A DNA stretch of 64,000 nt from Cyanobium sp. AMD-g (lineage in GTDB: Bacteria > Cyanobacteriota > Cyanobacteriia > PCC-6307 > Cyanobiaceae), in assembly GCF_024346395.1 (NCBI RefSeq), contig NZ_JAGQCW010000001.1:372001-436000 (forward strand), in the 5' to 3' direction. Numbering within the stretch: position 1 is the first letter of the stretch; each line of letters opens with the position of its first letter. Positions 41,055-63,784 of the stretch are shown here, one piece after another. The notes under the pieces were generated by a model that was not told where the DNA came from, searched no databases, and worked only from the letters and a program-made list of their open reading frames with translations. The position numbers were made by a program, and so were the translations under genes.

Positions 41055-41163
41055 AGAATATTCATGAAGCCTCTTCATCACTTTTCATTGCGCTTCAGCC
41101 CGATTGCCTGAAGGATCATTGCGGGATCGCCGCATCCAGAACGGCGTTACTTAATGTGAATTG

Positions 41164-41180
41164 ACCTCCCTTGCGGAGGT
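41164..41180 (+). promoter_or_regulatory. hairpin in the psbA upstream/leader region
   Basis: ACCTCC-CTTGC-GGAGGT forms a perfect 6-bp stem. Its right arm is a strong Shine-Dalgarno-like sequence, but lies about 31 bases before the psbA ATG, too far to serve that start directly. No T-tract follows, so it is not an intrinsic terminator. A TTAATGT at 41151-41157 could be part of a -10 element; I could not assign a convincing -35. Confidence 0.4.
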
Positions 41181-41211
41181 ATTTCTGAACTCTTCCACCC
41201 GTCTTACTTCC

Positions 41212-42288: not shown

Positions 42289-42332
42289 TCCGCGATCGGC
42301 CAGGCCCCACTGGCCTGGTGATCCTTCCCCTG

Positions 42333-42356
42333 GCCCCCTCTGCGGAGGGGGCTTTT
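42333..42356 (+). terminator. rho-independent terminator after psbA
   Basis: A perfect 8-bp GC-rich stem, GCCCCCTC-TGCG-GAGGGGGC, is followed by TTTT. It lies 45 bases after the psbA stop. A second inverted repeat (CCAGGCC/GGCCTGG around 42302-42318) sits just before it. Confidence 0.85.
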
Positions 42357-42436
42357 CTGTGGACTGGCCCGGTCACCGACCAGGGCGCACGGCCGCCAAA
42401 CTGTTCACACCAAGCTTTCTTGCTCCCCCCAGCGGC

Positions 42437-43396: not shown

Positions 43397-43400
43397 AGCC

Positions 43401-44195
43401 ATGCCCTCCGGCCAGCCTCTAGTCCACGGAAACGAGCGCATCTCGGTCCGCCATCTCTGCGTCGATTACCACGGGGTGGTGGCCGTCCACGACGCCACCC
43501 TGCATCTCGATGCCGGCAGCATCTGCGCCCTGGTGGGAATGAACGGCGCAGGAAAATCCACCCTGTTCAAAGCGCTGATGGGCTTCGTGCGCCCGTCGGC
43601 CGGCAGCATTGCCATCAACGGGCTGCCCCTGAAAGAGGCCCGCCGGGCCCGGGCGGTGGCCTACGTCCCCCAGACCGAAAGCGTCGACTGGAACTTTCCG
43701 GTCAACGTCCAGGAGGTGGTGATGATGGGCCGTTACGGCAGCATGAATCTGCTGCGCATCCCCCGGCCGCTCGACCGGGAGGCGGTGCAGGAGGCGCTGG
43801 AACGGGTGGACCTCTGGCCCCTGCGCCAGCGCCAGATCGGTGCCCTCTCCGGCGGGCAGCGCAAGCGGGCCTTCCTGGCACGGGCCCTGGCCCAGGGCGC
43901 CTCGGTGATGCTGCTCGATGAGCCCTTCAACGGCGTCGACATCCGCACCGAGAAGCTGATGATCGAGCTGTTCGAGCAGTTCCGGCGCGAGGGGCGCACC
44001 TTGATGATCTCCACCCACGACCTGGCCCACGTCACCAGCTTCTGCGACCAGGTGGTGCTGATCAACAAGACCGTGCTCGCCTACGGCGAGACGTCCTCGG
44101 TGTTCACCAGCGAGAACCTGGCCCTGACCTTCGGCGGCCTGCGGCTGGAGGCCACACCCGCGGCAGCCACGGACCCCGATCCGGGGGCGCCATGA
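43401..44195 (+). CDS. mntA: metal ABC transporter ATP-binding protein
   Basis: A 264-residue ATPase. Walker A is GMNGAGKSTLFKALMG, Q-loop is YVPQTESVDWNFPV, signature is LSGGQRKRAFLARAL, and Walker B is VMLLDEPFNGVD. The VDWNFPVNVQEVVMMGRYG stretch is typical of Mn/Zn/Fe (cluster A-I) importers. It starts 4 bases after the binding-protein stop and overlaps the permease start (ATGA at 44192). Confidence 0.92.
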   Translation: MPSGQPLVHGNERISVRHLCVDYHGVVAVHDATLHLDAGSICALVGMNGAGKSTLFKALMGFVRPSAGSIAINGLPLKEARRARAVAYVPQTESVDWNFPVNVQEVVMMGRYGSMNLLRIPRPLDREAVQEALERVDLWPLRQRQIGALSGGQRKRAFLARALAQGASVMLLDEPFNGVDIRTEKLMIELFEQFRREGRTLMISTHDLAHVTSFCDQVVLINKTVLAYGETSSVFTSENLALTFGGLRLEATPAAATDPDPGAP

Positions 44196-45064
44196 GCACC
44201 CTGCTCACCTGGTTGGTCGAACCGCTGCAGCAGGAGTTCATGGTGCGGGCCCTGCTGGTCAGCACCCTCGTCTCCTGTGTCTGCGGCCTGCTCTCCTGCT
44301 ACATGACGCTCAAGGGCTGGGCCCTGATGGGCGATGCGGTGTCCCATGCGGTGATGCCCGGCGTGGTGATCGCCTACGCCCTGAACCTGCCCTTCGCGGT
44401 GGGGGCCTTTGTCTTCGGCGTCGGCTCGGTGGCGTTGATCGGCTACATCAAGCAGATGACCCGGATCAAGGAGGACACGGTGATCGGGCTGGTGTTCACG
44501 GGCTTCTTCGCCCTCGGCCTGACACTGATCTCCAAGGTGCGCAGCAGCATCGACCTGTCGCACATCCTGTTCGGCAACGTGCTGGGCATCAGCTCGTCCG
44601 ACATCCTCCAGACGGTGGTGATCAGCCTGCTGGTGCTGACCGTGCTGGTGCTGCTGCGCAAGGACCTGATCCTGTTCTGCTTCGATCCCACCCACGCCCG
44701 CTCGATCGGCCTGCACACCGGCGTGCTGCACTACCTGCTGCTGTCGATGCTCTCGTTGGCGGCGGTGGCCGGCCTGCAGACGGTAGGGATCATCCTGGTG
44801 GTGGCGATGCTGGTGACGCCGGGGGCCACGGCCTACCTGCTCACCGATCGCTTCGACCGCATGGTGTGGCTCTCGATCCTGTCGGCAGTGCTCTGCAGCG
44901 TGGCCGGGATCTACTGGAGCTACTGGATGGATGCCTCCACCGCCGGCTGCATCGTGCTGGTGCAGACGCTGCTGTTCCTGCTCTGCTTCCTGCTGGCACC
45001 GCGCCATGGCCTGCTGGCCCAGCGGCGCCGTTCCCCGCGGGCGTCCCGCTTCCCGTCCGCGTGA
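44192..45064 (+). CDS. mntB: metal ABC transporter permease
   Basis: A 290-residue ABC-3 family permease with about eight hydrophobic helices (for example LLVSTLVSCVCGLLSCYMTLKGWALMGDAVSHAVMPG, given here as family block positions 20-55). It forms the membrane channel of the Mn/Zn-type importer. The start overlaps the ATPase stop and its own stop overlaps the next gene's GTG (GTGA at 45061), so four genes form one coupled unit. Confidence 0.92.
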   Translation: MSTLLTWLVEPLQQEFMVRALLVSTLVSCVCGLLSCYMTLKGWALMGDAVSHAVMPGVVIAYALNLPFAVGAFVFGVGSVALIGYIKQMTRIKEDTVIGLVFTGFFALGLTLISKVRSSIDLSHILFGNVLGISSSDILQTVVISLLVLTVLVLLRKDLILFCFDPTHARSIGLHTGVLHYLLLSMLSLAAVAGLQTVGIILVVAMLVTPGATAYLLTDRFDRMVWLSILSAVLCSVAGIYWSYWMDASTAGCIVLVQTLLFLLCFLLAPRHGLLAQRRRSPRASRFPSA

Positions 45065-50028: not shown

Positions 50029-51000
50029 GTGTCCGCCTATCCGATCCCGGACAACGAAGCGGAGCGGCAGGCGGCCCTCGACCAGCAACACATTCTGGAT
50101 GCGGAGTCCGATGAGGACTTCAATCGCATCACACGCCTGGCCAGCCAGATGCTGGGCGTGCCGACGGCCCTGATTTCCCTGGTCGATCGCCAGCGGCAAT
50201 GGTTTCTTTCCCGGGTGGGCCTGGAGGCGAGTGAAACGCCCAGGGATGTGGCCTTCTGTGCCCACGCCATCTGCTCCGACGAGGTCATGGTCGTCAATGA
50301 CGCCAGCCAGGATGAGCGCTTCAAGGACAATCCCCTGGTGACGGGGAACCCCAGCATCCGCTTCTACGCCGGTGTGCCATTGCAGACCCCCTCAGGCTTC
50401 AATCTGGGGACGTTGTGTGTGATCAGCCCCCAGCCGAGGCAACTCGCCGGCAACGAGCAACAACTGCTGAAGGACCTCGCCGGCATGGTGATTCAGCATA
50501 TCGAAGCCCGGCGCAACAGTTACCTCTGCTCCCTCACGGGCCTCAAGAACCGAAGGCCATTCTTCGATGCGGGTCTGCAAGAGTTCATTCGGGCCCAGCA
50601 GAAAGGAGAACCGTTGACCCTGATGATCTTCGGTCTGGATGATTCCCATGGTTTCTACACACGGTTCGGCCAGCAACAGGGCGATCGGTTGCTTCAGGAG
50701 CTGGCCAGACAACTGCAATCGGTCTTTGGAGAGAGCGCCCTCTGCGGGCGTGTGAGTGATGACGAGTTCGCCGTGTTGCAGACAAGCCTGGCGGGGCAGG
50801 AGGCGGTAGCCAAGGCGGAGGGCTTCCGTTCCGGATTGGCTCTCCAGGGCTGGGTGATGGAGGGAGTCCGCCATCCTCTGCCCATCAGCCTGGGCACGGC
50901 TTGCCTCGGCTCCGACGACACCAGCTTCAAGGTGCTGTTCCAACGGGCCGAAACGGCCCTGAAGCAGGCCAGGCTATCCGGGACAAGCCTTCCGGGCTGA
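50029..51000 (+). CDS. GAF domain protein with degenerate GGDEF domain
   Basis: A 323-residue signalling protein. GAF domain is about residues 25-160 (RITRLASQMLGVPTALISLVD, FCAHAICSDEVMVV). The GGDEF-type domain is about 165-320: it begins well (SLTGLKNRRPFF), but the active-site loop reads RVSDDEF instead of RxGGDEF, and the nucleotide-binding FKxxND stretch is lost (GFYTRFGQQQGD). It is therefore unlikely to make cyclic di-GMP; it might bind GTP or act as a regulator. GTG at 50029 is used. It is convergent with a hybrid kinase (12-base gap). Confidence 0.85.
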   Translation: MSAYPIPDNEAERQAALDQQHILDAESDEDFNRITRLASQMLGVPTALISLVDRQRQWFLSRVGLEASETPRDVAFCAHAICSDEVMVVNDASQDERFKDNPLVTGNPSIRFYAGVPLQTPSGFNLGTLCVISPQPRQLAGNEQQLLKDLAGMVIQHIEARRNSYLCSLTGLKNRRPFFDAGLQEFIRAQQKGEPLTLMIFGLDDSHGFYTRFGQQQGDRLLQELARQLQSVFGESALCGRVSDDEFAVLQTSLAGQEAVAKAEGFRSGLALQGWVMEGVRHPLPISLGTACLGSDDTSFKVLFQRAETALKQARLSGTSLPG

Positions 51001-51012
51001 ACCGAGCGACAC

Positions 51013-52935
51013 TCACTGGGCCAGCACGGCCGCGTGGGCCCGGGACAGGGCGGCTTGCAGGGACTCGACCCTGATGGGCTTGCCGATGAAATCATTCATG
51101 CCGCTGGCCAGGGCCTCGGCACGGTCGCAGTCACGGATGTTGGCGGTGACCGCCACGATCCAGGGCCGCAGCGTGTTGCCGGCCTGCTCCCGAATCCTGC
51201 GGGTGGCCTCAAAGCCATCCACCTTGGGCATGCGCAGATCCATCAGGATGATGTCCGGATCCAGCTGGCGATGCTGGTTCAGGGCCTCTTCCCCATCGCG
51301 CGCCACGCTGACGCCGTAGCCGAGACGCTGGAGCATCAGTTCGCAGACGCGGGCATTGACGAGATTGTCTTCCGCCAGAAGAATCCGCAACGGGTGGTCT
51401 TCGGCGAAGCTGGCTGTTGTCGGACCATCTGGCGCTGCAGGTGATTCAGGGATCGCCACCGGCAGGATCACCGTGAAAAGGCTGCCTTGACCCGGTTCGC
51501 TCTCCACCTCAATCGCGCCGCCCATGGCGACGACAAGGTGATGGCAGATGGCCAATCCCAACCCTGCGCCGCCATGGACGCGGGTGGTGGTGGAATCAGC
51601 CTGCGAAAAAGGCTGGAACAGGGACTCTCGGGCGGAGTCGGAGATTCCGGGCCCGGTGTCACGGACGCGCAAGACCAAAGGAACCCTGCCATCGGGCTGG
51701 AAAGCCTGAGTTGAAACGGTGATGGACACCTCTCCGCTCACCGTGTACTTGATTGCATTGCTGACCAGATTCACCACGATCTGACGCAGGTGGAGAGGAT
51801 CTGACAGCACGACATCGGGCAGGCCGGTGTCGAGGGAGAGGGATAACACCAGCCCTTTGGTCTGCGCTTGTTCGGCGAACAAGGCCATCACCTCGGCTAA
51901 CAGAGGCCGAAGCTGGCAGGGAGCGGAGTCGATCACCAGATGGCCGCTGTCGATCGCTGAGACGTCGAGCAGTTGGTTGAGCAACAGCAGCAGGGATTCC
52001 CCAGAGTTCCTGACCGTCTGCAGACAGGTTTGTTGGTGGGGGGTCAGGCCAGTGCTGAGCAGAATATTGGTGAGGCCAATCACCCCATTCAGCGGCGTGC
52101 GCAGCTCATGGCCCATGGTGGCCAGGAAGGTGCTCTTGGCGAGGTTGGCCTGCTGTGATGCAGCCGCCGCTTGACGGGCCAGATCAGCCGTTTCCAGGCT
52201 GGATTCCAGGGCCGAAGCCGTGGATCTCAGATAACGGCAGTGCAGGAAGCCGGCAAAGGCCGAAAGCAGGGCACTGCCTGCCAGTGAGAGACCCAGACTC
52301 AGGCGCAGGGGAAAGAGTTGCTGATTGAGGCTGGCCAGGGAGAGATCGACACCCACAATGGCCGTCGCCTTGCCGTCCTGGAATGGGGCATAGGCCGACA
52401 GGAAGCTGCCCCATTGATCGGTATAGGGATCGGAACTGACCCTGGGCTTGGCAAGCCGGGCCGCGATCAGGGCATCGGCCGGGGCGTCTGCGTAGAGCTG
52501 ACCGACAACAGGGGCGCTGAAGTGGTCTCCCGGATTCTTGAAGAAGACCGTGCTGTCCAGACCAAATCGCAGGGGCTTTGATCGACCCCTCAGGGTGTAG
52601 GCGTAAAAGATCGCCGGCACCGATGTCCTGAGCTGGATCAAGGGCTTGGAGGCCTGGCGATAGAGCTGGCTGCCCATCTGATCAGGACGGCGAATCTGGG
52701 TGTGCAGATCACCATCCATCTCCGCCGCGGTGACCATGGCCAGATCCAGCAGCCGTTGCTGGACGGACCTGAAGAGTGTCCGTTCAGCCACCCAGTAGGT
52801 GACCATCAGGGCAGAACCGGCAATGGAAAAGATTCCCAAAGCCAGCAGGATGGAAGCCCGGGACAGCTTGCGCCTTGACCCCGATGGGGCATCCAAGGTG
52901 CCCACGCCGCCCCTCATCGCATCACTCAGTATCAT
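51013..52935 (-). CDS. membrane hybrid histidine kinase (sensor-HisKA-HATPase-REC)
   Basis: A 640-residue kinase. Two transmembrane helices (about 26-48 and 210-232) flank a periplasmic sensor region of about 160 residues (contains DPYTDQWGSFLSAYAPF and AIVGVDLSLASLNQQ, resembling a Cache-like fold). The HisKA histidine is H276 in MGHELRTPLNG; ATPase boxes are NLVSNAIKYT, DTGPGIS and GGAGLGLAIC; the receiver has LLAEDNLVNAR, phospho-acceptor Asp in IILMDLRMPKVDG and the lysine in FIGKP. ATG at 52935 overlaps the upstream kinase stop (ATGA). The ligand is unknown. Confidence 0.9.
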   Translation of the reverse strand: MILSDAMRGGVGTLDAPSGSRRKLSRASILLALGIFSIAGSALMVTYWVAERTLFRSVQQRLLDLAMVTAAEMDGDLHTQIRRPDQMGSQLYRQASKPLIQLRTSVPAIFYAYTLRGRSKPLRFGLDSTVFFKNPGDHFSAPVVGQLYADAPADALIAARLAKPRVSSDPYTDQWGSFLSAYAPFQDGKATAIVGVDLSLASLNQQLFPLRLSLGLSLAGSALLSAFAGFLHCRYLRSTASALESSLETADLARQAAAASQQANLAKSTFLATMGHELRTPLNGVIGLTNILLSTGLTPHQQTCLQTVRNSGESLLLLLNQLLDVSAIDSGHLVIDSAPCQLRPLLAEVMALFAEQAQTKGLVLSLSLDTGLPDVVLSDPLHLRQIVVNLVSNAIKYTVSGEVSITVSTQAFQPDGRVPLVLRVRDTGPGISDSARESLFQPFSQADSTTTRVHGGAGLGLAICHHLVVAMGGAIEVESEPGQGSLFTVILPVAIPESPAAPDGPTTASFAEDHPLRILLAEDNLVNARVCELMLQRLGYGVSVARDGEEALNQHRQLDPDIILMDLRMPKVDGFEATRRIREQAGNTLRPWIVAVTANIRDCDRAEALASGMNDFIGKPIRVESLQAALSRAHAAVLAQ

Positions 52936-54560
52936 TCGGATGTAGCCGACGCTGTGGCTCGGCGCCAATCGCGATACCTGCCCAAGGCCACTCGAAGATC
53001 CGCCAATCGAAGTGGTTTGGAGAGAAAGTCGTTCATCCCAGCCGCTGAACACTCCTGCCGGTGGGAGTCGAATGAATAGGCTGTCAGGGCAATGATATAG
53101 AGATCAGAGTAACCTTCACTGCGCAATTGGCGTGAGGCGGCCATGCCGTCAAGGCCTGGCATGGCCACATCCATGAAGATGAGATCCACGCTTCCATTCC
53201 TGACGGACTGAATGGCCGCATTGCCGTCTCCCACCGCGTCCGCGCTTAGATGGAATCTGGCCAGCATCAACTCAAGCACCCTGCGGTTGACGCGGTTATC
53301 ATCAGCAATGAGAATTCTGATTCCAGGCTCCAAGCTCACTTCGGGATTCTCCCTGACAATCTCAGCTTGCTGCTGCGAAGCCAGCATGAACGGCAAACTG
53401 ACCGTAAAGCAACTGCCAGATCCGAGACTCGAATCGACGGAAATTCTGCCGCCCATCAATTGGCACAATCTTGAGCAGATGGCGAGGCCGAGGCCGGCAC
53501 TTTGCTGCGTCTGGGCGGGATTGGAATGGCCAATGAATTCCTCAAAGATAAGAGGTAGAGCCTCCCTGGAGATGCCAATACCCGTGTCGGAAACATGGAA
53601 CATTAGGGATCTCACGTTAGCCGTGACCTCCAAGACATCAACGCCGAGACGAACCTCCCCCTCATTGGTGTACTTACAGGCGTTCCCCAACAGGTTGAAC
53701 AGAATCTGGCGCAGCTTGAGATCATCTCCCACGAGCCATCTCGGCGTATCTGTCGGCATGCTGAGGTGCAAGCCAAGTTGTCTTACAGAGGCTTGATACT
53801 GAAAAAGATGAATAATGTCATTGAGCAAACCATGAAGGTCGAAGGTTCTGGGATTCAGTGCAAGTCGCCCGGATTCAATCTGCGAGATATCCAGAATGTC
53901 GTTGATCAGACTTAGCAGATACTCGCCGTTTTGATGAATCGTTTCGAGCATCTCCCGTTGCGGCCCCTCCATTGAGCTGCTGAGCAGCACATCCGTCATC
54001 CCAATCACAGCGTTCAATGGGGTGCGTATTTCATGGCTCATGTTGGCCAGAAACCGGGTTTTGGATTGGCTGGCTGCCAGGGCCTCATCGCGCGCCAGCT
54101 GCAACGCACGGGTTCGCTCAACCACCTGAGCCTCCAGCTGGTCACGGGCATCGATCAACTTGTCCTGGGCCTGGACAATCGCGCTCTGGTCCCGGAAGGT
54201 GAACACCAAAGACGGCTTGCCCGGCAGATCGACCGTCGCCCAGGACACCTCAATCACCTGGCGGAGAGGCGCACCCAACAATTCCCAGGTGCTGGATCCT
54301 TCTGATCCTGAGCTCCAGAACGGCTGGCCAGATCGGCTATCGCTGAGATCGTGGAGATGGGGCCTCGGGAGGATCTGGCTCAGGCCTTGGCCAAGGCTCT
54401 GCAAGCGGGACAAACCCACGAACCGATCAAACGATGCATTCGTCCATTCCACGATTCCGTTGAGATCGGTGAAGGCAAGGGCCTCATCAACAGCTCCCAG
54501 GGCCGCCTCCAGCCTCCCGAGGGTGCTGCGCAGCTGGCCGACAAGGGTCTGATCCGGCAT
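52932..54560 (-). CDS. cytosolic PAS-hybrid histidine kinase (PAS-HisKA-HATPase-REC)
   Basis: A 542-residue soluble kinase. A PAS-like domain is at about 20-125 (ALAFTDLNGIVEWTNASFDRFVGLS), then a coiled-coil linker (QDKLIDARDQLEAQVVERTRAL), HisKA with H176 in [13 protein letters not shown], ATPase boxes NLLGNACKYT, DTGIGIS and SAGLGLAIC, and a receiver with ADDNRVNRR and LIFMDVAMPGLDG. It lies 7 bases after a stand-alone PAS gene and is coupled to the membrane kinase, so all three are probably one operon. Confidence 0.9.
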   Translation of the reverse strand: MPDQTLVGQLRSTLGRLEAALGAVDEALAFTDLNGIVEWTNASFDRFVGLSRLQSLGQGLSQILPRPHLHDLSDSRSGQPFWSSGSEGSSTWELLGAPLRQVIEVSWATVDLPGKPSLVFTFRDQSAIVQAQDKLIDARDQLEAQVVERTRALQLARDEALAASQSKTRFLANMSHEIRTPLNAVIGMTDVLLSSSMEGPQREMLETIHQNGEYLLSLINDILDISQIESGRLALNPRTFDLHGLLNDIIHLFQYQASVRQLGLHLSMPTDTPRWLVGDDLKLRQILFNLLGNACKYTNEGEVRLGVDVLEVTANVRSLMFHVSDTGIGISREALPLIFEEFIGHSNPAQTQQSAGLGLAICSRLCQLMGGRISVDSSLGSGSCFTVSLPFMLASQQQAEIVRENPEVSLEPGIRILIADDNRVNRRVLELMLARFHLSADAVGDGNAAIQSVRNGSVDLIFMDVAMPGLDGMAASRQLRSEGYSDLYIIALTAYSFDSHRQECSAAGMNDFLSKPLRLADLRVALGRYRDWRRATASATSE

Positions 54561-54567
54561 GCTCGCC

Positions 54568-54915
54568 TCAGCTCAACGGACGCAGGGTTGCCGCGAACAC
54601 CCAGCTATCGCCACGGCGTTCGGCCACAATGAAATGCTCCGAGTTGATGGCCCGGTTGTCTTTACAGATGGTCATCAATTGCAGTGGATGGTTGAGAATC
54701 TGCGATTCACCGACGATCTGGAAACGGGAGAAGCCGAGATGGTGGGCATCTTGATAAGCAGCCGGCAGAATCATGGAGAGAGAATGACCCTTGAGATCGT
54801 CCAATGACCATCCATAGGTCGCCTCAAATAGATCGTTGATCTCTACAATCAACCCTTCCTGGTCGGCAGCGACAAAGGGAAGAGATTGGCGTCGTAACTC
54901 TTCAATCGTGACCAT
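54568..54915 (-). CDS. stand-alone PAS domain protein
   Basis: A 115-residue protein consisting almost only of a PAS fold: PFVAADQEGLIVEINDLFEATYGWS, LKGHSLSMILPAAYQDAHHLGF and a final beta strand region. No output domain is attached. It could sense a small ligand and dock on the kinase encoded just downstream. It is divergent from the STAS gene; the 175-base gap contains a perfect GTGTGG-TCAGAC-CCACAC hairpin but no clear promoter that I can name. Confidence 0.8.
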   Translation of the reverse strand: MVTIEELRRQSLPFVAADQEGLIVEINDLFEATYGWSLDDLKGHSLSMILPAAYQDAHHLGFSRFQIVGESQILNHPLQLMTICKDNRAINSEHFIVAERRGDSWVFAATLRPLS

Positions 54916-55090: not shown

Positions 55091-55468
55091 ATGGTAAACT
55101 CCTATCGATTTGAGTTTCCATGTGTGGATGATCTGTACATCCTGAAACCCATGGGCCTGCTCGACGGCCAGAGTGGTGCTGAGTTGCGGCAATCTGTCGG
55201 TTCAGTTCTGGCGGAGCAACCCAGGAACATCCTGATTGATTGCCAGGGGGTCGACTTCATGGACAGCAGCGGATTCGGCGCACTGGTTTCCGTGCTGAAA
55301 CGGGTCAAAGAGCAAGGTCAGCAACTGTTTCTTTGCGGTCTCTGCAGCCAGGTCCGCATCGTTCTGGAACTCACCGGCACCGAAAAGGTGTTCACCACGT
55401 TTCCGAGCAGTGAGGCATGCATCGCCGCGTTGGCTGACGATCCATCGGGCGGATCAACCGACCCCTGA
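55091..55468 (+). CDS. STAS-domain anti-anti-sigma-factor-like protein
   Basis: A 125-residue STAS protein. LKPMGLLDGQSGAELRQSVGS is the first strand-helix, and DCQGVDFMDSSGFGALVSVLKR holds the phosphorylatable Ser (S59 by analogy with SpoIIAA DSSG). In partner switching, such a protein is phosphorylated by an anti-sigma kinase and dephosphorylated by a PP2C phosphatase, exactly the kind of enzyme encoded convergently at 55491. No anti-sigma kinase is in the window. Confidence 0.9.
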   Translation: MVNSYRFEFPCVDDLYILKPMGLLDGQSGAELRQSVGSVLAEQPRNILIDCQGVDFMDSSGFGALVSVLKRVKEQGQQLFLCGLCSQVRIVLELTGTEKVFTTFPSSEACIAALADDPSGGSTDP

Positions 55469-55490
55469 ACCACCAGAAGGCCCGTGAAGA

Positions 55491-56663
55491 TCACGACAGC
55501 AGAGCCCGGATCACCGAGTAGTCATCGGTGAATGGCGCATTCTCCGTGACGTGGAGGATCTGGGACAGCAACCGATCCAGGCCATCGTCATCAGCAAGCA
55601 CGTTCTGGCACTGCTCCACCAGTTGCATGAAGTCGGGCAGCGTCCCCATCCCACCACCGGGCCTGGGCACCTCATAGAGGCCATCGCTGTAGACGAGCAG
55701 GCAAGCACCTTCACCAACCTCAAGGCTCTCGGTGCCATAGGTCGCGTCTTCGAACAACCCTACGGCCATGCCCTGACCTTTGAGCCAATGGCAGGGAAAC
55801 GCCCTGGTGCGGCTCCAGAGCAGGGCCGGAGGATGGCCCGCACTGGCGTAGCGCAGGGTTCGGCTGGAGGCCTGATACACCCCGTACCACAGCGTCAGAT
55901 ACCGCCCCTGGTGACGCTCCATCGGAAACCCGGAGTTCAGGGTCTGCAGCACCGCGCCAGGATCACGCAGATCAACGGGCAGGGAGCGGGAGCGCAGCTG
56001 GTTGTGAACGGAAATGGAGGGGAAGGCCGCCGCCAGGCCATGGCCGGAGCCATCGGCGAGGTAGAGGACGAAGTGGTCATCATCGAGCCAGAAGAAATCA
56101 AAGGAATCACCACCCAGTTCATGGCAGGGCTCGAAACGGGAGTCCGCCCGCACCACACCACCGATGGGCTCGGGCAGCAGGGATCGCACATAACTGGCCG
56201 CCTCCTCCAGCTCCCGATCCAGCCGCAGCTTCTGCTGATGCAACTCACTCGCCAGGAGCTTCAGTCGTTCATTGGCCTGGTGCAGGCGGATGCCGGAGCG
56301 GACCCGGGCCAGCAACTCCTCCGCATCCACCGGCTTGCTGAGAAAATCATCGGCGCCGCAGTCGAGCCCCTCCACCCGGTCTTCCACCCGGGAGCGTGAG
56401 GTGAGCAGGATGAAGTGGGTTGATTCCAGGGTCGGTTCCGCCTTGAACGCCCTGCAGACGTCCAGCCCATTCATGCCGTCCATCAGCCAGTCGCAGACGA
56501 CAACCGTGGGGGGGGAGAGACGGGCCTGCACCAGGGCACTGTCACCAGAATCCGCCACAACAATCTGGTAGCCCTGGGCGCGTAGACGGACCTCGAGGAT
56601 GCGGGAATGGATGCGGTCGTCATCCACCAGCAGGATCGAGATCGGGGCGGGACAACCTTCCAT
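55491..56663 (-). CDS. response regulator with PP2C/SpoIIE phosphatase output
   Basis: A 390-residue protein. Residues 1-125 are a receiver (LLVDDDRIHSR, phospho-acceptor D58 in VVVCDWLMDGMNGLDV, lysine in FLSKPVDAEE). A coiled coil (about 130-165) links to a SpoIIE/RsbU-type Ser/Thr phosphatase (about 175-390) with metal-binding acids in GGDSFDFFWLDDDHFVLYLADGSGHG, VYSDGLYEV and FTDDYSVI. Phosphorylation of the receiver would switch the phosphatase, whose likely target is the STAS protein next door. It follows the HNOBA kinase by 5 bases. Confidence 0.93.
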   Translation of the reverse strand: MEGCPAPISILLVDDDRIHSRILEVRLRAQGYQIVVADSGDSALVQARLSPPTVVVCDWLMDGMNGLDVCRAFKAEPTLESTHFILLTSRSRVEDRVEGLDCGADDFLSKPVDAEELLARVRSGIRLHQANERLKLLASELHQQKLRLDRELEEAASYVRSLLPEPIGGVVRADSRFEPCHELGGDSFDFFWLDDDHFVLYLADGSGHGLAAAFPSISVHNQLRSRSLPVDLRDPGAVLQTLNSGFPMERHQGRYLTLWYGVYQASSRTLRYASAGHPPALLWSRTRAFPCHWLKGQGMAVGLFEDATYGTESLEVGEGACLLVYSDGLYEVPRPGGGMGTLPDFMQLVEQCQNVLADDDGLDRLLSQILHVTENAPFTDDYSVIRALLS

Positions 56664-56668
56664 GGGGC

Positions 56669-59188
56669 TCAGGCGTCCATCGGACGGCGCTGGCGCAGAG
56701 CTTCGGTCACCCGTCCAGCCTCGACAAGCAGCTGGTCGATTCTGACCTGGGGCCAGGCCGCCGAATCGGAGCGCAGGGACTCCTCAACCTGGCCGCACAA
56801 CGTGGCCAACCGCAGGGCCCCCAGGCTGGCACTGGGGGAGCGCAGCGAATGGGCAGCAGCGATCATCGCCAGTGGATCCTGGTACTGGTGGGCCATCACC
56901 ACCGCCGAAACGAGTCGCATCGCGTCCTCGAGGTAGAGGTCGATGAGCTCCTGGAGCACGGCCGCCGCCCCGTCTCCCATGGCCTGCGCCAGCTCCTCCC
57001 AGGCGGCCGCGTCGATCGGGTCGGACCCTCCACCTGCTGGCGGTTCCGGTTGGTCGCGGGGCTGGTAGTGCTCCAGGGCGTAGGTGAGCTGGGCAGGCAC
57101 GATCGGCTTGGCCAGGAAGTCGTCCATGCCGGCCTGGAGGCAGGCCTGACGATCCTCCGGACGGCCATGGGCGGTCATGGCGATGATCCAGGGCTGCACG
57201 AACGGAGCCGGCAGCCGCCGGATGGCCCGCGTGGTCGCATAACCATCAAGCTCCGGCATCTGCACGTCCATGAACAGCACGTCGAAGGGGGTCTCCTGCA
57301 CGGCTGCGAGCGCCTCTGATCCTGAAGCCACGGCGTCGGCCCGGTAACCCAGCCGCTGCAGCAACTGAAGCGCCAACTGGCGGTTCACGGGGATGTCATC
57401 GACAACAAGCAGCCGCAGCGGCAGACGGTCGGCGAGGCGATGGGGGCCGCCCCGGGGGGCAGATTCGCGCGTCAGCGTTGGTGGACCGGCCAGCTGCCGC
57501 TCCAACGGGCTCTGCCCTTGCTGCATCAGGGCCAGGCGGAGCTGTTCGAGTCGCACAGGCTTGGAGAGCATCACAGACGGCGTCTGGGCCAGGGATGCCA
57601 GCTCGGACACCATGCACCTGTCGGCCAGGACGATCCAGGGGTGCGCCTGAAGCAAGGGGTCGTGCAGAAAGGCTGGCGGGGATGCCTCCCCTTCGCAGCA
57701 CAGCAGCCGCCCATCGATGACCACCACCCCATGGCCGAAGTCGCCGATCGGGGACGGGGCGGTCCGCATGGGGATCTGGCAGAGATCGGGGGCGTTCACC
57801 GACAGGCCCATCCAGGTCAACTGCTTCTGGAGCACGGCGCGCAGGGTGGAATTGCCGACCAGCAGCAGGATGGCGGACGCCGGCGGCACCAGGGGCTCCT
57901 GGCTGCTGCTGGCCTGGGGGGCCGGGTCAAGATGCAGCAGCACGTTGAAGGTGAAGACACTGCCTACGCCTTCCTGGCTGGCCAGGTTGATCGAGCCCCC
58001 CATCAACTCACACAGGCGCCGTGTGATCGCCAGACCAAGGCCCGTGCCGCCGTAGCGCCGGGCGGTGGAGGGATCAGCCTGGCGGAAGGGCTCGAACAAC
58101 TGGGGAATCAGCGTGTCGGACACGCCAATGCCGGTGTCCCGGATCTGAAACGTGAACTGGCACGGTGTCGGCTGGCCGGCCTCGGCGGCCTGGGGCTCCG
58201 CTGAAACCGTGACGACGACCTCGCCCTGGGGGGTGAATTTGACCGCATTGCTCAGCAGGTTCCAGAGGATCTGGCGCAGACGGGTGAGGTCGCCGATCAC
58301 GGCCGTGGGCAGGCTGGGCTCGATGTCGAGGATCATTTCCAGCGGCTTGTCCAATAGGCGGGACACGCTCAGATCGAGGGCCTCTTCGATGCAGATGCGG
58401 AGGTTGAAGCGCTGCTCATCCAGCTGCATGGCGCCGGATTCGATCTTCGAAAAGTCGAGAATGTCATTGATGATCGTCAACAGGGAGTCGGTGCTGCTGT
58501 TGATGATCTCGACATACTCCCGCTCGATGGGCTCCAGCTGGGAGTCCTGAAGCAGACCAGCCATGCCGATGATGGCGTTCATCGGCGTTCTGATCTCATG
58601 GCTCATCATCGCCAGAAAGGTATCTTTGGCAGCATTGGCTGCTTCAGCCGCCTCCTTGGCCGCCTCCAGCTCCGCATTGAGCGAGGAAAGGCGCTGGGTG
58701 GACTCCCGTAGCTCACCCCGCTGTGCCGTGAGAATCGCATTGAGCTGCTGGCTTTCCGTGAGTGCCACATTCCTGGCCTGCAGCAGGTAAAGAAAGTCAA
58801 TCAGGGAGTCATGCAGTGGGAAGTCATTGATCTTCAGACCGAGAGACTTGAGATCCTCCAGCTGCAGCAAACAGGGCGTACCGACGAACAACAACTGTTC
58901 CTTCTGATCAAGGCAACAGATCTGGCCCTTGAGTTGCAAAGGGATGGCTTCAGCTTTGAGAATCACATGCCGATCCAAGCAGTCACGCAGACTGGTGAAT
59001 GACATGGGCACATCCGGGCGCAGAAGCTGGAAGTGGTTGCTGAGAAGCTGCCCCACCAGATCCGTGACAGGAAGAATGCGACGCAGGACAGAACCGGCCG
59101 ACTCAATCCGCAGCTCACCGTCAACGATGAAGTGAAAAGGGAACAGATGATCGAGAAGATGGGCCGATAATGGCACTGATGTCGCCAT
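56669..59188 (-). CDS. HNOBA-domain hybrid histidine kinase with REC and HPt (H-NOX partner)
   Basis: An 839-residue kinase. Residues about 12-145 match the HNOBA (H-NOX-associated) domain: [71 protein letters not shown] coiled coil (about 145-190) leads to HisKA with H197 in [12 protein letters not shown] and ATPase boxes [17 protein letters not shown] and [11 protein letters not shown] pseudo-receiver lacking the acidic pocket (about 435-560), a true receiver with [11 protein letters not shown] and [12 protein letters not shown] (about 595-715) and a C-terminal HPt with [14 protein letters not shown] follow. The H-NOX gene is 16 bases upstream. Confidence 0.93.
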
Positions 59189-59204: not shown

Positions 59205-59804
59205 TCATTCGTGCCTCACACCGGGATCAGGCTGAGAAGCCTCGGGATCGGATGCCGGGGACAGACGAACATGGAAAAGGTCGGTGGCGTCGCCCTGATC
59301 GCGAGACGCAATCTGATCGACCTCCAGGGGGGTTTGAAAGCGTTTCCCCAGGCCGTGAAGCAGGCCAGTCACCATCGGTGCCAGGCCTCGGCGTTTGGAT
59401 CGATACTCCAGTTGCATGGACGCATCGGCACTGTGTTGGCAACGGAACGAGGGAGGTTGCAGTTCAGGGAAGGCAATGGCGGCACGGGCGTGCAGATTGT
59501 CAAGCTGATCGAGGAATTCCGGCAAGGTTTCGCCCGTGCTCTCAAGAAGCTGTTCGTAACCCTCGCTGGCCGTGTAGGTGATCCAGTACTCCCCAAAGGC
59601 CTGCATGATCTGATCTCCCGAGAGGCCCAGTTCCTGCGTGGCCGCCGCCACGAGCCGATGGGTGACGTCGTCAGGATAGGCCTGGTACGTGGAAAAGAAA
59701 TCCAGATCCTGGAGATCGGCCCGCGCCTTGATGCGCTGCCAGACGTCCTCACCATGGTGGCTGGCAACCATCTGCTGGATGGCCCGATTGACAAGCCCGT
59801 ACAT
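59205..59804 (-). CDS. H-NOX heme-nitric-oxide/oxygen-binding sensor
   Basis: A 199-residue H-NOX protein. [49 protein letters not shown] and [24 protein letters not shown] are family blocks. The heme-ligand histidine is H105 (DNLHAR) and the YxSxR heme-propionate motif is Y134-S136-R138. At the place where the O2-binding type of Thermoanaerobacter has a distal tyrosine, this protein has a nonpolar residue (GLAPM), so it should prefer NO over O2. The C-terminal 30 residues are polar. It is the first gene of the operon with the HNOBA kinase and the receiver-phosphatase. Confidence 0.95.
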
Positions 59805-59856: not shown

Positions 59857-60918
59857 TCAGGCCACGCCAGGCAGTTGATCGAGGCACCACTGGAAATCGC
59901 GGCCTACCTGCTCACGCACGGGCTGGTGATTGAACAGGCGCCCGCGCGTGGCCAGAATCTCCGGCAAGGCCGATACGGGATCCAGGCTGGCCAGATCACA
60001 GCCGGGCAGGTCAAGTCGTCGGCAGAGGTCCCTGCCCTTATTGGAATAGTGGAGATGATAAGGAACCCGCCCCGCCGCCAGCGACAGAACGGCCGTGTGG
60101 AACCGGACGGCAATCACACTGTCCACCAGAGCGAACAAGGCCATGGCGAGTTGCCAGCTCGGCACGGCTGAATCGTCGACGAACGGGTTGAGGATGGCGG
60201 TTCCGGGGGCCCGTTCCTGGATGGCGGCGGCCACCTCGAGATCGTTGTCAGAGCCATAGGCTGCCGATTGGATCAACACGATGGGCTTGAGTCCGGCCCC
60301 GCTGAGTTCATGGCTGAGCCTGGCCATCCTGTCAACGAAGGAGTCATTATCGTGGCCGTACATGCTGTCGAAACCACGCACCGACAGCACGGCAGCCTGT
60401 AACGGATCAATCCCTAGCCGCTCCAGGCCTTGCCGGGCTCTGGCCGTCGCCAGGGGGGAGCTCTCCAGCACAAAGGCGATGTCGTAGGACAACCGTGCGT
60501 GCACCCCTGCCTCACACAGGCGCTGGTGACTTTCAGCGTCTCGCACACAGACAGCCGCCAGGCGCTTCATAGAGCGCTGCAAAAGTAGAAAGCTGAGGCC
60601 GTGGCAGGAGCGAGGAATCGACTGGCCAAACAGGATCGTGCGCTTCGGACTGTGCCTCAGTTCAACCAGGTTATTGAGGAACGCCTTGGTGACAGACCAT
60701 TCACGGGAATTGTTGAAGATGTCCCCGCCAACGCTGACATATGCATCGCAGTTCCTAGGGCGATCAGGCAAGAACGTGACACCAAGGGTGGCATCGGGGC
60801 ATTCATCCTGAACGCAGCCCACCAGCTCCACATCAGGCAACAACTTGCGGAAAGCACTATAAATAGCGGCATCCCCAAGATTCAGGGTGCTGTAGGCGTT
60901 GATCAGGCCAATGCGCAC
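59857..60918 (-). CDS. polysaccharide pyruvyl transferase family protein
   Basis: A 353-residue protein of the pyruvyl-transferase family, which adds ketal pyruvate to surface sugars. The N-terminus has LINAYSTLNLGDAAIYSAFR and SVGGDIFNNSREW; later blocks are ILFGQSIPRS, CVRDAESHQRL, and VDSVIAVRFHTAVLSLAAG with the conserved RxH. It lies 52 bases upstream of the H-NOX gene on the same strand, at the edge of the lower-GC polysaccharide region. Confidence 0.85.
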   Translation of the reverse strand: MRIGLINAYSTLNLGDAAIYSAFRKLLPDVELVGCVQDECPDATLGVTFLPDRPRNCDAYVSVGGDIFNNSREWSVTKAFLNNLVELRHSPKRTILFGQSIPRSCHGLSFLLLQRSMKRLAAVCVRDAESHQRLCEAGVHARLSYDIAFVLESSPLATARARQGLERLGIDPLQAAVLSVRGFDSMYGHDNDSFVDRMARLSHELSGAGLKPIVLIQSAAYGSDNDLEVAAAIQERAPGTAILNPFVDDSAVPSWQLAMALFALVDSVIAVRFHTAVLSLAAGRVPYHLHYSNKGRDLCRRLDLPGCDLASLDPVSALPEILATRGRLFNHQPVREQVGRDFQWCLDQLPGVA

Positions 60919-61131: not shown

Positions 61132-62022
61132 TCAGGCAGATCGAATGAGTCGCCGCAGTTTGCCCTTCACCATCTCGAAAGTAGGAACAGTACGTACAAA
61201 CCTACGATAGGCCGCTGCTATGCCCAATAGTTGAGCCGGACGCTGACCGGTAAAGGCCGTTCGGTCAAGCAGTGCAAACCATCGATCTTGAAAGTTTGCG
61301 GCATAATCAGCGTGCCAGGGCTTGACTTTCCCCAAGAAATGGATAATGCCATCTGAAAAGTTAGAATCGGCCCTTCCCTTAGAGGTATTCCATTTCGGAT
61401 CGAGGACCAACCAATCGCCAGCCAAGACGATATTCAGAGCATCCTGATCCATTTGGTCCAGCAGATCGTAGTTGTCCTGTGCAACCGAAAGAGCCTTCGC
61501 CTGGATCTCATGCTGTCGCCATGCGTCCAGATCCATGACAATGACACCTGAATTAAAGTACTGATGAGGATTGTCTAACTTCAGCTTCTCACGCAGGCGC
61601 TGCTGCTGTTGAGGAGTGTCGATGCCACCATCAATAACACAAGCACTGGATTTCCCATGCAGATCGAGAAGCTGCAGCTCGTTTAGATCCGAGCAAACAA
61701 TCAGATCTGTATCCAAGTAGATGCAGCGAGAGACATTCGCCAGATATTCCGGGATAAAGAAGCGGGCATAAGGGGATTTACTCTTGACAAGCAGCGTGCT
61801 GCGGAAGTTATTGACCCGCTCAAGATCAAAATCAATGAAGCTGATTGCACCGAGATTGGAGGTTTGCCAGGAGTTGGAGAGTTGCTGCTTATCGGCCGGG
61901 GATAGATCGACGCAAATGACGTAGACGTTGATGGTAGTACTACAAGCTTCCAAAGCAGAACGAACAGTAACCGCCGCCCCCAAAAGATAATTCGCCGTTG
62001 CAACGATCACAATGTTGACCAT
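61132..62022 (-). CDS. family 8 glycosyltransferase
   Basis: A 296-residue GT8 enzyme of the type that adds galactose or glucose to lipopolysaccharide or capsule. NIVIVATANYLLGAAVTVRSAL begins the fold; CIYLDTDLIVCSDLNEL holds the DxD metal motif; YFNSGVIVMDLDAWR, DQDALNIVL and HFLGKVKPW are later family blocks. ATG at 62022 is used; the frame is open to 62175. Codon use is less GC-rich than in the rest of the window, a sign of possible transfer. The 213-base stretch 60919-61131 downstream has a 7-bp inverted repeat TACCTGG/CCAGGTA (61064-61091). Confidence 0.88.
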   Translation of the reverse strand: MVNIVIVATANYLLGAAVTVRSALEACSTTINVYVICVDLSPADKQQLSNSWQTSNLGAISFIDFDLERVNNFRSTLLVKSKSPYARFFIPEYLANVSRCIYLDTDLIVCSDLNELQLLDLHGKSSACVIDGGIDTPQQQQRLREKLKLDNPHQYFNSGVIVMDLDAWRQHEIQAKALSVAQDNYDLLDQMDQDALNIVLAGDWLVLDPKWNTSKGRADSNFSDGIIHFLGKVKPWHADYAANFQDRWFALLDRTAFTGQRPAQLLGIAAAYRRFVRTVPTFEMVKGKLRRLIRSA

Positions 62023-62740
62023 CGTAGCTCTTGGAACCATGCCATCCCATTTTAGCTCAGCACTGTGTTTCAGATACGTCAGGCTGGCGGTTTGGCCGCA
62101 AAATCTGACATGACTAAGGTGATTGCAAATCGTTTGGCTCTTGGCGCCTGCCTGTGGCCGGGGGGAATCGGTCAATGTCCATTGATCAAGTCCTCGTCTA
62201 CATGCTGGCCTTCAGCAAGTGGGTTGCATGAAGATGAACGACTCGGGGCCACAACAAGGCAATCAGAGTCAACATCAGGACAGGCAAAGAAGCACCCACT
62301 CTTTCGCGTGTGGCGAGACTTTTTTTGCTGGTTCGTATCAGGCATTGTTCAGAGGGGGATCCAGGGCTGAGTCATGGCTTGACCAACGCTTCGGATCTGG
62401 GCGGATCTGTTTGGCGCCACGCCATCGGCCCGAGCGCTGTGCTGTCGTGCAACACTGCCTGCTGGCCAGCCCAGCCACTTGGCGACGAAGCGACTGTGCG
62501 GGGCAAGTCTTGGAGATCGGCGGCTGTGGGAGGCGCAGAGACAACCGAAGACTGAAGGGCCAGCCAGGGACCATCCAGACACACATTGAACCGGTCCTGC
62601 GTCCAGGTGACGGGAATCATCAGGCGATTGCGTGAGCACGCGTCCATCTCGCCCAGGGTGAAAACCCGTAGCTGGCAGTCTGTGGATACGCTACCGTTGT
62701 CTGAGCAAGCCAAAAAGGGAACTCCCCCAGATCGACACAG
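62023..62740. other. 0.7 kb stretch without a confident gene
   Basis: Short frames occur on both strands (for example plus 62065-62370 and 62219-62635) but none shows a recognisable motif, and they overlap each other. The stretch must contain promoters for the divergent GT8 and Wza-like genes. It may also hold remains of a decayed gene. I saw no transposase, RNA gene or terminator in it. Confidence 0.4.
62372..62713 (-). CDS. doubtful small hypothetical protein
   Basis: A 113-codon frame on the minus strand with fairly GC-rich third positions in its middle part (around MDACSRNRLMIPVTWTQDRF). No motif or ribosome-binding site stands out. It could be a real small gene divergent from the Wza-like gene, or part of a decayed one. 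Included only because it is the most gene-like frame in this stretch. Confidence 0.2.
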   Translation of the reverse strand: MACSDNGSVSTDCQLRVFTLGEMDACSRNRLMIPVTWTQDRFNVCLDGPWLALQSSVVSAPPTAADLQDLPRTVASSPSGWAGQQAVLHDSTALGPMAWRQTDPPRSEALVKP

Positions 62741-63784
62741 ATGTCGAAACTTCCATTATGGCTTCTCGGACTTACTTGCTTTTTTGGCACTGCAGGATCG
62801 GCATGGGCATTACCGATCTCACCAGGGGATCGGGTCAAGTTGACAATCCCGGAAGGGGAAGAATTCAGTGGAATCTTTGAAATCAATCTGAACGGGGAGC
62901 TTGAACTTCCCTTTTCCAAGGGGATCTACGCTGTGGGTCTTGAGCCGGAGCAGCTTCAGAAGCGTGTTTATCAAGCCCTGGTACAACAAGGCTTTTTTCA
63001 GCCATCTTTTCTCAGGGTCAGTCTGAGTGTCATCCAATGGGCACCTGTCCCGGTCTTTGTCATTGGATCTGCTTTTCAGCCTGGACGGCTATTGATCAAC
63101 GAGTTAAGTGACGTCGAACAGACCCAGACTCCTGTTCAACTTTCAGGGCAAGCCCCGCTCAATCGTATGCTCACAACGGCACTCCGACGTGCGGGAGGCA
63201 TTACTCCCACTGCCGATGTGGCTGCGATACAGGTGAAACGAGGTTCAAAAAGGCAAGTGATTGACATGTCCGGAGCTTTCACGGGGGAACCTTTTAACGA
63301 CATCCCACTCATTGCCGGTGATCAAGTCATTGTTCCGGACACTGGTACCGTCAATCCACTCATCGTTCGCCCTTCTCAGATCACGCCGGCTGAAGTTGAG
63401 ATTAACATCTCAAATCTGACCGTTCCAGCGGCTGGAAATTCTGTTGCTGGCATTGGCTCTCAAGCCAGGAATTTTCCCTATGGATCTCGTCTCTCCCAGG
63501 CGGTGATCTCGGCCAACTGTGCTGGTGGAACCATGGTCACCAATGCGCGACGCCGAGCCATCCTGGTGAGGACTGAAAGGATCTCGGGCAAGACGACAGT
63601 CTACGAAAGAGGGGTAGAAGATCTGCTTCGCACGTCTACAGACAGCAGCAACAATCCCTATCTCATGGCAGACGATGGTGTTGCTTGTTATGACTCCAAG
63701 GTGACCAACTTCCAGGCTGTCCTTGGCATTCTGACTCAGTTTCTGAATCCAGCTGTTTTGATTTATGATCGCAGTATTCCCTAG
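62741..63784 (+). CDS. polysaccharide export protein, Wza-like
   Basis: A 347-residue outer-membrane auxiliary export protein. A signal peptide covers about 1-24 (LLGLTCFFGTAGSAWA) with no lipobox Cys. The polysaccharide export domain follows (about 25-110: SPGDRVKLTIPEGEEFSG, GELELPFSKGIYAVGL, LSVIQWAPVPVFVIG), then SLBB-like repeats (about 105-200: LTTALRRAGGITPTADVAAIQV, DIPLIAGDQVIVPDTG). It would form the export channel for a surface polysaccharide. A further gene starts 7 bases downstream. Confidence 0.87.
   Translation: MSKLPLWLLGLTCFFGTAGSAWALPISPGDRVKLTIPEGEEFSGIFEINLNGELELPFSKGIYAVGLEPEQLQKRVYQALVQQGFFQPSFLRVSLSVIQWAPVPVFVIGSAFQPGRLLINELSDVEQTQTPVQLSGQAPLNRMLTTALRRAGGITPTADVAAIQVKRGSKRQVIDMSGAFTGEPFNDIPLIAGDQVIVPDTGTVNPLIVRPSQITPAEVEINISNLTVPAAGNSVAGIGSQARNFPYGSRLSQAVISANCAGGTMVTNARRRAILVRTERISGKTTVYERGVEDLLRTSTDSSNNPYLMADDGVACYDSKVTNFQAVLGILTQFLNPAVLIYDRSIP

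What the first reader, a model, noticed from the sequence alone, without database searches (positions are those of the whole stretch)
55091..56663. Receiver-gated PP2C phosphatase convergent with its probable STAS substrate
The REC-SpoIIE protein has intact phospho-acceptor and phosphatase metal residues, and the STAS protein has the DSSG phosphoserine site. They lie tail to tail, 22 bases apart. This is an RsbU/RsbV-like pair controlled by two-component phosphorylation. The missing piece, an RsbW-type anti-sigma kinase, is not in the window.
Basis: partly seen in the sequence, partly recalled or inferred. Interest (0 to 1): 0.6.

Follow-up and report, generated by a model that had tools for sequence, protein, structure and literature searches.

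The report
Gas-sensing switch for slime-making enzyme
In this photosynthetic bacterium a phosphatase and its likely target protein, found side by side, appear to be part of a larger conserved switch in which a nitric-oxide-type gas sensor controls the enzyme that starts building the cell's outer slime sugar, which would be an unusual direct use of a switch normally known from gene regulation.

Summary
In detail: a REC-SpoIIE(PP2C) protein (55491-56663, -) and a STAS protein with DSSG (55091-55468, +) lie tail to tail, 22 bases apart. Of 299 genomes of the order, 24 hold a REC-PP2C ortholog, and 24 of 24 keep the convergent STAS. The "missing" RsbW-type kinase exists about 17 kb away, just outside the window, at the end of an exopolysaccharide (EPS) gene cluster, directly behind a STAS domain fused to the initiating sugar transferase (STAS-PGT) that also carries DSSG. 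This kinase is in 23 of the 24 REC-PP2C genomes (27 of 299 overall). In four cyanobacteria of another family the order is STAS-PGT, RsbW, STAS, then convergent REC-PP2C and its kinase. In the window the phosphatase is the third gene of an H-NOX / hybrid kinase with Hpt / REC-PP2C run. Best reading: a phosphorelay-gated partner switch acting on EPS initiation, with H-NOX as sensor here and other sensors elsewhere. The parts are known kinds: the STAS-sugar transferase fusion is in print (all4160), and SypE/SypA and HmpUVW are close precedents. The assembled circuit, with an enzyme as candidate effector, did not appear in ten searches of an open-licence library. All activity is inferred.

The parts
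55091..55468 (+). Stand-alone STAS protein (RsbV/SpoIIAA-like), DSSG at residues 58-61, candidate phospho-Ser59
   Evidence: Pfam STAS 4.2e-21; TIGR00377 76.2 bits, cut-off 53.45; first Ser of DS[SNG]G kept in 27 of 27 sequences read, the window's included; convergent with REC-PP2C in 24 of 24 genomes
55491..56663 (-). REC-linker-SpoIIE/PP2C phosphatase (RsbU-like response regulator)
   Evidence: Pfam; REC and PP2C residues invariant in 22 of 22; best solved relative 3eq2/3f7a, profile match 2.3e-49 over residues 3-330
56669..59188 (-). HNOBA-HisKA-HATPase-REC-Hpt hybrid kinase (H197, D641, Hpt H780; their roles recalled from the families), 5 bases upstream of REC-PP2C
   Evidence: Pfam; residue positions
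59205..59804 (-). H-NOX haem gas-sensor protein, 16 bases upstream of the hybrid kinase (His105; Y134-x-S136-x-R138; roles recalled)
   Evidence: Pfam HNOB 6.8e-52; aligned over residues 1-182 to Alr2278, 3.4e-73; positions
54568..54915 (-). Small PAS-like protein, divergent from STAS (175 bases between the starts)
   Evidence: TIGR00229 8.7e-9; Pfam PAS 0.003, below cut-off; synteny
52932..54560 (-). Hybrid histidine kinase (HisKA-HATPase-REC), possible extra input
   Evidence: Pfam; it is the best-matching reference for the kinase beside stand-alone Hpt and REC-PP2C in 6 of the 8 loci with a stand-alone Hpt
51013..53052 (-). Second hybrid histidine kinase; start uncertain (overlaps its neighbour by 121 bases)
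   Evidence: Pfam; matches in 14 of the 23 other REC-PP2C loci, one of them a fragment
59857..60918 (-). Polysaccharide pyruvyl transferase, first EPS gene beside the signalling genes
   Evidence: Pfam PF04230 8.9e-25
61132..62175 (-). Family 8 glycosyltransferase of the EPS cluster
   Evidence: Pfam 2e-45
62741..63784 (+). Polysaccharide export protein (Wza-like), start of the EPS gene run that leaves the window and ends with STAS-PGT (L023:8036-9073) and RsbW (L023:9070-9570)
   Evidence: Pfam Poly_export 1.7e-6, 28.5 bits against cut-off 28

Best explanation
The pair is the phosphatase and antagonist half of an RsbU/V/W-type partner switch that belongs to an EPS locus. Signal: H-NOX acts on the HNOBA hybrid kinase, and phosphate runs His197 to Asp641 to Hpt His780 to Asp58 of REC-PP2C. 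Output: the RsbW-type kinase at the far end of the EPS cluster phosphorylates Ser59 of the free STAS protein and Ser77 of the STAS domain on the initiating sugar transferase (STAS-PGT); REC-PP2C removes these phosphates. Free, unphosphorylated STAS then binds RsbW and competes it away from STAS-PGT, so that chain initiation is set after translation, without a sigma factor. By analogy with SypA and HmpV, phosphatase on would mean EPS on, and NO on H-NOX would lower it. Shown by sequence: domains, intact residues, conserved gene pairing and co-occurrence. Inferred: every phosphotransfer, binding step and direction.
For: Convergent pair in 24 of 24. RsbW (E 0.001 or better) in 23 of 24 REC-PP2C genomes and 4 of 275 others (Fisher 2.9e-29, relatedness ignored); the one miss, G252, ends at a contig edge inside STAS-PGT. 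STAS-PGT directly before RsbW in 23 of 23, IDSSG in 24 of 24 loci read. RsbW-profile hit within 1.5 kb of 24 of 30 STAS-PGT genes (20 of 26 outside the own genus) against 0 of 20 sugar transferases without STAS, read with 3 kb flanks. Four genomes of another family (L298-L301): STAS-PGT, RsbW, STAS in one run, then convergent REC-PP2C and a kinase; L299 has H-NOX too. Hpt next to REC-PP2C in 24 of 24: fused to the HNOBA-type kinase in 15 (Pfam-tested in the window; the other 14 by aligned match), fused to another kinase in G273, stand-alone in 8. The second-best STAS match in the own genome is the STAS-PGT domain, 38% over 72 residues. RsbW E54 and N58 invariant in 22 of 22. In G010 both REC-PP2C and STAS-PGT are broken as assembled.
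Against: No activity shown. In this genome the pair is 17 kb from RsbW and could use the second set at 760 kb. Shared descent and linkage inflate the co-occurrence. Of 20 STAS-PGT loci read widely in other cyanobacteria, 14 lack REC-PP2C and 5 lack RsbW in the stretch; L302 has STAS-PGT, RsbW and REC-PP2C but no separate STAS was seen in 20 kb; L305 has a free STAS with neither. In G204 RsbW is 526 kb from REC-PP2C and lacks the DxG motif. In G177 REC-PP2C is in two frames while STAS-PGT and RsbW are open. RsbW of this locus matches solved RsbW weakly (profile 2.7e-6) and is below the NCBIfam RsbW cut-off (21.6 of 145 bits). In Synechocystis a kinase of this type, Slr1861, controls a sigma factor (PMC12329169, passages).
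Confidence: 0.6

Rival explanations
1. Classical switch: REC-PP2C dephosphorylates the free STAS, which frees a sigma factor from RsbW; EPS and other genes are then controlled at transcription. The STAS on the sugar transferase is a by-stander or a feedback point.
For: RsbW-type kinases classically bind sigma factors (recalled), and in Synechocystis Slr1861/Ssr1600 controls SigC (abstract and passages of PMC12329169).
Against: No sigma-factor domain among the proteins of the locus that were scanned; three ORFs stay open: L023 4-1299 and 1316-2644 (no Pfam hit) and L023 7141-7596 (not scanned). RsbW adjacency follows the STAS fusion on the sugar transferase: 24 of 30 against 0 of 20.
Confidence: 0.2
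2. SypA/HmpV-like: the free STAS itself is the output and acts on an unknown partner; RsbW and REC-PP2C only set its phosphorylation.
For: SypA and HmpV are described this way (passages). Free STAS is the partner kept beside REC-PP2C in 24 of 24.
Against: A fused STAS-PGT with the same motif lies directly before RsbW, which gives a simpler target.
Confidence: 0.15
3. The pair works with the second set of the genome (STAS, RsbW, cNMP-PP2C at L024 4089-6195) in a general stress response, and its place beside the EPS genes is accidental.
For: The second set is complete and its RsbW scores higher with HATPase_c_2 (69.6 against 48.9 bits).
Against: The second RsbW is found in 14 of the 24 REC-PP2C genomes, the EPS-linked one in 23 of 24; synteny with EPS genes is kept across families.
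Confidence: 0.05

Closest known systems
SypE/SypA of Vibrio fischeri (syp polysaccharide locus)
   Same: Response-regulator Ser phosphatase acting on a STAS protein inside a polysaccharide locus, with phosphorelay input (PMC4517449 and PMC10120452, passages); an H-NOX pathway is said to act, likely through the Hpt domain of SypF, on the same polysaccharide genes (PMC8738867, passage).
   Different: SypE carries kinase and phosphatase functions on one protein; here the kinase is a separate gene and a second STAS is fused to the sugar transferase. SypA's target is stated to be unknown.
HmpU/V/W of Nostoc punctiforme
   Same: Cyanobacterial phosphatase/STAS/kinase switch of the hormogonium motility and polysaccharide locus, with STAS as output on an undefined effector (passages in PMC8256260 and PMC6495340; the original paper was not seen).
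   Different: No receiver, H-NOX or STAS-sugar transferase link was mentioned in the passages seen.
all4160 of Anabaena (glycosyltransferase with N-terminal STAS, heterocyst envelope polysaccharide)
   Same: STAS plus sugar transferase on one chain, tied to a polysaccharide (one sentence in PMC8256260; passages on its expression in PMC4390870; the cited paper is not held).
   Different: No partner kinase or phosphatase is described in what I saw.
IcfG/Slr1861/Slr1856 and Ssr1600 of Synechocystis
   Same: Cyanobacterial phosphatase, RsbW-type kinase and several STAS substrates for one kinase (PMC12329169, passages).
   Different: The target shown there is SigC; not described as an EPS locus.
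H-NOX/HnoK-type relays; Alr2278 H-NOX of Nostoc
   Same: H-NOX with a hybrid kinase that passes phosphate to an Hpt (PMC6759604, abstract and passages); nearest solved H-NOX is Alr2278.
   Different: Outputs in the passages seen are c-di-GMP enzymes, quorum sensing, transcription or the syp genes; a PP2C as direct output was not mentioned, though the syp relay also reaches SypE.
REC-PP2C response regulator 3eq2/3f7a (Pseudomonas RssB type, name recalled)
   Same: Best solved match, over receiver and phosphatase, 2.3e-49.
   Different: The window protein scores far below the NCBIfam cut-off for Pseudomonas RssB (122.9 of 700 bits).

Membership tests
RsbU/V/W-type partner switch | PP2C (SpoIIE family) phosphatase with intact metal Asp residues | tested here: met
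   SpoIIE 2e-36; D186, D204, D327, D381 invariant in 22 of 22 (their metal role is recalled)
RsbU/V/W-type partner switch | STAS protein with phosphorylatable serine | tested here: met
   DSSG in the window; first Ser in 27 of 27 sequences read, window included
RsbU/V/W-type partner switch | HATPase_c_2 kinase with N-box Glu/Asn, encoded with the others | tested here: met
   HATPase_c_2 48.7 bits, cut-off 27.4; E54, N58 in 22 of 22; same locus, about 17 kb away. It is below the NCBIfam RsbW equivalog cut-off
RsbU/V/W-type partner switch | Kinase phosphorylates STAS, phosphatase reverses it, kinase switches partner | not testable with these tools
   needs biochemistry
RsbU/V/W-type partner switch | Sigma factor as third partner (classical form only) | tested here: inconclusive
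   none among the proteins scanned in the locus; three ORFs of the locus and sigma factors elsewhere in the genome not resolved
H-NOX/HnoK-type relay | H-NOX with proximal His and YxSxR, next to a histidine kinase | tested here: met
   HNOB 6.8e-52, HNOBA kinase adjacent; residues (meaning of the motif recalled)
H-NOX/HnoK-type relay | NO-bound H-NOX changes kinase activity | not testable with these tools
   needs biochemistry
SypE family | RsbW-type kinase and phosphatase outputs on one receiver protein | tested here: not met
   only Response_reg and SpoIIE on the window protein
STAS-sugar transferase (all4160-like) | N-terminal STAS and C-terminal Bac_transf on one chain | tested here: met
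   L023:8036-9070: STAS 3.3e-12, Bac_transf 1.4e-62; orthology to all4160 itself not tested
HmpU/V/W | Orthology to the Nostoc proteins | not tested
   sequences not compared

The most novel reading that the evidence does not exclude
A partner switch whose direct effector is an enzyme: RsbW and the free STAS compete for the STAS domain of the phosphoglycosyl transferase that starts EPS chains, and a gas-sensing H-NOX phosphorelay sets the balance through a receiver-gated PP2C. The module is built for exchange: the sensor changes between species while Hpt, REC-PP2C and STAS are kept, and it is found in several cyanobacterial families.
Probability: 0.45. Interest if true: 0.78.

Novelty: new variant of a known kind. 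Interest (0 to 1): 0.62.

Why it matters
For SypA in Vibrio and HmpV in Nostoc, what the STAS protein acts on is stated to be unknown (passages). Here the same kind of switch sits beside a STAS domain fused to the first enzyme of the sugar pathway, which names a target that one serine change could test. If true, slime and biofilm production in cyanobacteria would be set directly by gas or other signals without new transcription, and the sensor could be exchanged between species while the output stays.

Tried and rejected
Rejected: that the kinase is missing from the genome. Rejected as main partner: the second set at 760 kb, whose RsbW was not found in 10 of 24 REC-PP2C genomes. Set aside, only for lower scores and long frames: HATPase_c_2 hits on contigs 3, 4 (two) and 9. 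The HATPase_c_2 frame at C1:337 kb, the second-best hit, and the STAS at C1:369 kb were looked at as ORFs only. SpoIIE-type matches of about 26-35% identity, which most genomes of the order hold (276 of 299 have some match), were taken as other phosphatases by score and identity alone.

It gave three cyanobacterial relatives of 43-47% (Moorena, Rivularia, Spirulina; convergent STAS in 3 of 3), four others of 29-33% (three Rhodobacteraceae-type, one Poribacteria), and otherwise matches whose best segment ended at or before residue 198, mostly the receiver. Ten paper searches around the parts showed no title or abstract start about this combination; passages of nine papers were read, none whole. 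No structure was predicted. The labels ALG14-, Wzc- and Wzy-like rest on my reading of the sequence; the ALG14 reference used was in a wrong frame, so its rows there, and in later scripts that reused the file, are not evidence. The control has one STAS-profile hit near a plain sugar transferase (L326, 26 bits).

Full report
What was claimed and what is there. The REC-SpoIIE protein has D14/D15, D58, T88 and K110 in the receiver and D186, D204, D327 and D381 in the phosphatase domain, invariant in 22 of 22 aligned sequences, the window's included (two of the 24 orthologs, G010 and G177, were left out of that alignment because their frames are broken). The STAS motif is D58-S59-S60-G61; the alignments with SpoIIAA chains show Ser at the place of S59 in 1th8_B and Ala in 1tid_B. 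That this is the phosphorylated serine of SpoIIAA is recalled.

The pairing is conserved. Of 299 genomes of the order, 24 hold a REC-PP2C ortholog, and in 24 of 24 a STAS match lies tail to tail beside it. In 15 of these an H-NOX match lies upstream; 21 of 299 genomes have H-NOX at all, so six have H-NOX without a REC-PP2C ortholog. In three of the 15 the H-NOX frame is cut or split as assembled (G059, G104, G133) while the kinase and REC-PP2C frames are open.

The gene run. On the minus strand of the window: H-NOX (59804-59205), HNOBA-HisKA-HATPase-REC-Hpt kinase (59188-56669), REC-PP2C (56663-55491). STAS reads towards them, and its start faces a PAS-like protein and two hybrid kinases (54915-51013). 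The nine REC-PP2C genomes without H-NOX keep an Hpt immediately before REC-PP2C: fused to another kinase in G273, stand-alone in 8 of 8 others. So the sensor changes while Hpt, REC-PP2C and STAS stay, which supports the phosphorelay input.

The missing kinase. Seven HATPase_c_2 hits exist in the genome. One, L023:9070-9570, overlaps by four bases the end of L023:8036-9073, which is a STAS domain fused to a bacterial sugar transferase. The STAS part has D76-S77-S78-G79 and the transferase part an Asp-Glu pair at 249-250 (that this pair is catalytic in such enzymes is recalled). Both genes end a run of EPS genes that starts in the window: pyruvyl transferase, family 8 glycosyltransferase, export protein, flippase-type protein, three family 2 glycosyltransferases and a family 28 protein by Pfam; two more ORFs look like a co-polymerase and a polymerase by eye only (no Pfam hit).

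Co-occurrence. The EPS-linked RsbW is found in 27 of 299 genomes: 23 of the 24 with REC-PP2C and 4 of the 275 others. The missing one, G252, is cut by a contig edge within STAS-PGT. In 20 of 23 the two lie on one contig within about 45 kb; in G204 they are 526 kb apart, in G208 and G286 on different contigs. Fisher's test gives 2.9e-29, without correction for relatedness. The four RsbW-only genomes show at most a C-terminal piece of STAS-PGT before it: 58 residues at a contig edge in G152, 45 in G141, 42 in G291, none in G186, whose RsbW is split. The other RsbW of this genome (760 kb) is found in 14 of the 24.

Beyond the order. Of 386 genomes of the phylum, 254 have some match to the STAS-sugar transferase. 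The tool kept 30 loci: 24 have an RsbW-profile hit within 1.5 kb, 20 of 26 if the four of the own genus are left out (one of those four, G010, has the gene in two frames). The first 20 rows of the same list that cover the transferase part only (G010 left out), read with 3 kb flanks, have none. The profile was built from the own family. I read 20 of those 26 loci over 20 kb (14 kb for one): 15 have RsbW and 6 have REC-PP2C (L298-L302, L307; a seventh listed hit, L316, is a receiver only). In L298-L301 the order is STAS-PGT, RsbW, STAS on one strand, then REC-PP2C and a hybrid kinase converging on them; the kinases of L298 and L299 have HNOBA and Hpt by Pfam, and L299 has H-NOX. This puts the four output parts side by side and is the strongest single argument that they work together. 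L302 has no separate STAS in the stretch read. Among named genomes, Moorena, Rivularia and Spirulina have REC-PP2C with convergent STAS; RsbW is clear in Moorena (105 bits), weak in Spirulina (28 bits) and not seen in Rivularia.

Loss together. In G010 the EPS run is shortened in the stretch read, REC-PP2C has a stop inside and STAS-PGT is in two frames. In G177 REC-PP2C is in two frames while the other parts are open, which does not fit a strict rule. Assembly errors are not excluded.

How it probably works. See Best explanation. Precedents: NO-bound H-NOX lowers autophosphorylation of its kinase, which passes phosphate to an Hpt, in Vibrio parahaemolyticus (abstract and passages of PMC6759604); in V. 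fischeri an H-NOX pathway is said to act, likely through the Hpt domain of SypF, on the syp genes (passage of PMC8738867), and SypE switches between kinase and phosphatase on SypA Ser56 (passages of PMC4517449). One kinase acting on several STAS proteins is described for Slr1861 (passages of PMC12329169). The gas bound by this H-NOX, the sign of each step and the identity of the true substrate are not shown here.

Novelty. The fused STAS-glycosyltransferase all4160 is in print (PMC8256260, one sentence), so that part is not new. Ten searches of an open-licence library listed no paper whose title or abstract start was about H-NOX with REC-PP2C, or about an RsbW beside a STAS-sugar transferase; subscription papers, including the original Hmp and all4160 papers, were not seen. 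I file it as a new variant of the partner-switch kind.

A D1-like (psbA) ORF at 41161-42288, recognised by eye, and the cyanobacterial relatives place it among cyanobacteria; its family contains many genomes of 1.4-1.8 Mb, which suggests the Synechococcus/Prochlorococcus family (inference).

Noticed in passing
window 50098-51000 (+): GAF-GGDEF protein (GAF 9.4e-17, GGDEF 4.5e-23) whose signature reads SDDEF, ending 12 bases from the end of the hybrid kinase at 51013; possibly an inactive cyclase tied to the same signalling genes.
   Followed up: partly
L024 4089-6195 (G000:C1:760 kb): A second, compact STAS / RsbW-type kinase / cyclic-nucleotide-binding PP2C set.
   Followed up: partly
L142, L149, L150 (G059, G104, G133): H-NOX truncated or split while the hybrid kinase and REC-PP2C stay open: sensor decay with output kept, as assembled.
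   Followed up: partly
L141 (G010): Shortened EPS cluster with both REC-PP2C and STAS-PGT broken as assembled.
   Followed up: partly
L145 9160-10023 (G063): Two STAS genes in tandem facing REC-PP2C instead of one.
   Followed up: no
L184 10138-10491 and L187 5249-5605 (G141, G273): Extra STAS copies 48-49% identical to the window STAS; no REC-PP2C match in the stretches read; a CBS-type ORF near the one in L184 by eye.
   Followed up: partly
six genomes: G030, G135, G143, G149, G159, G283: H-NOX without a REC-PP2C ortholog in the same order; what their H-NOX controls was not looked at.
   Followed up: no
window 42212-45064 (+): ORFs that look like a metal-binding protein, ATPase and permease of a manganese/zinc ABC transporter behind a psbA-like gene (by eye).
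   Followed up: no
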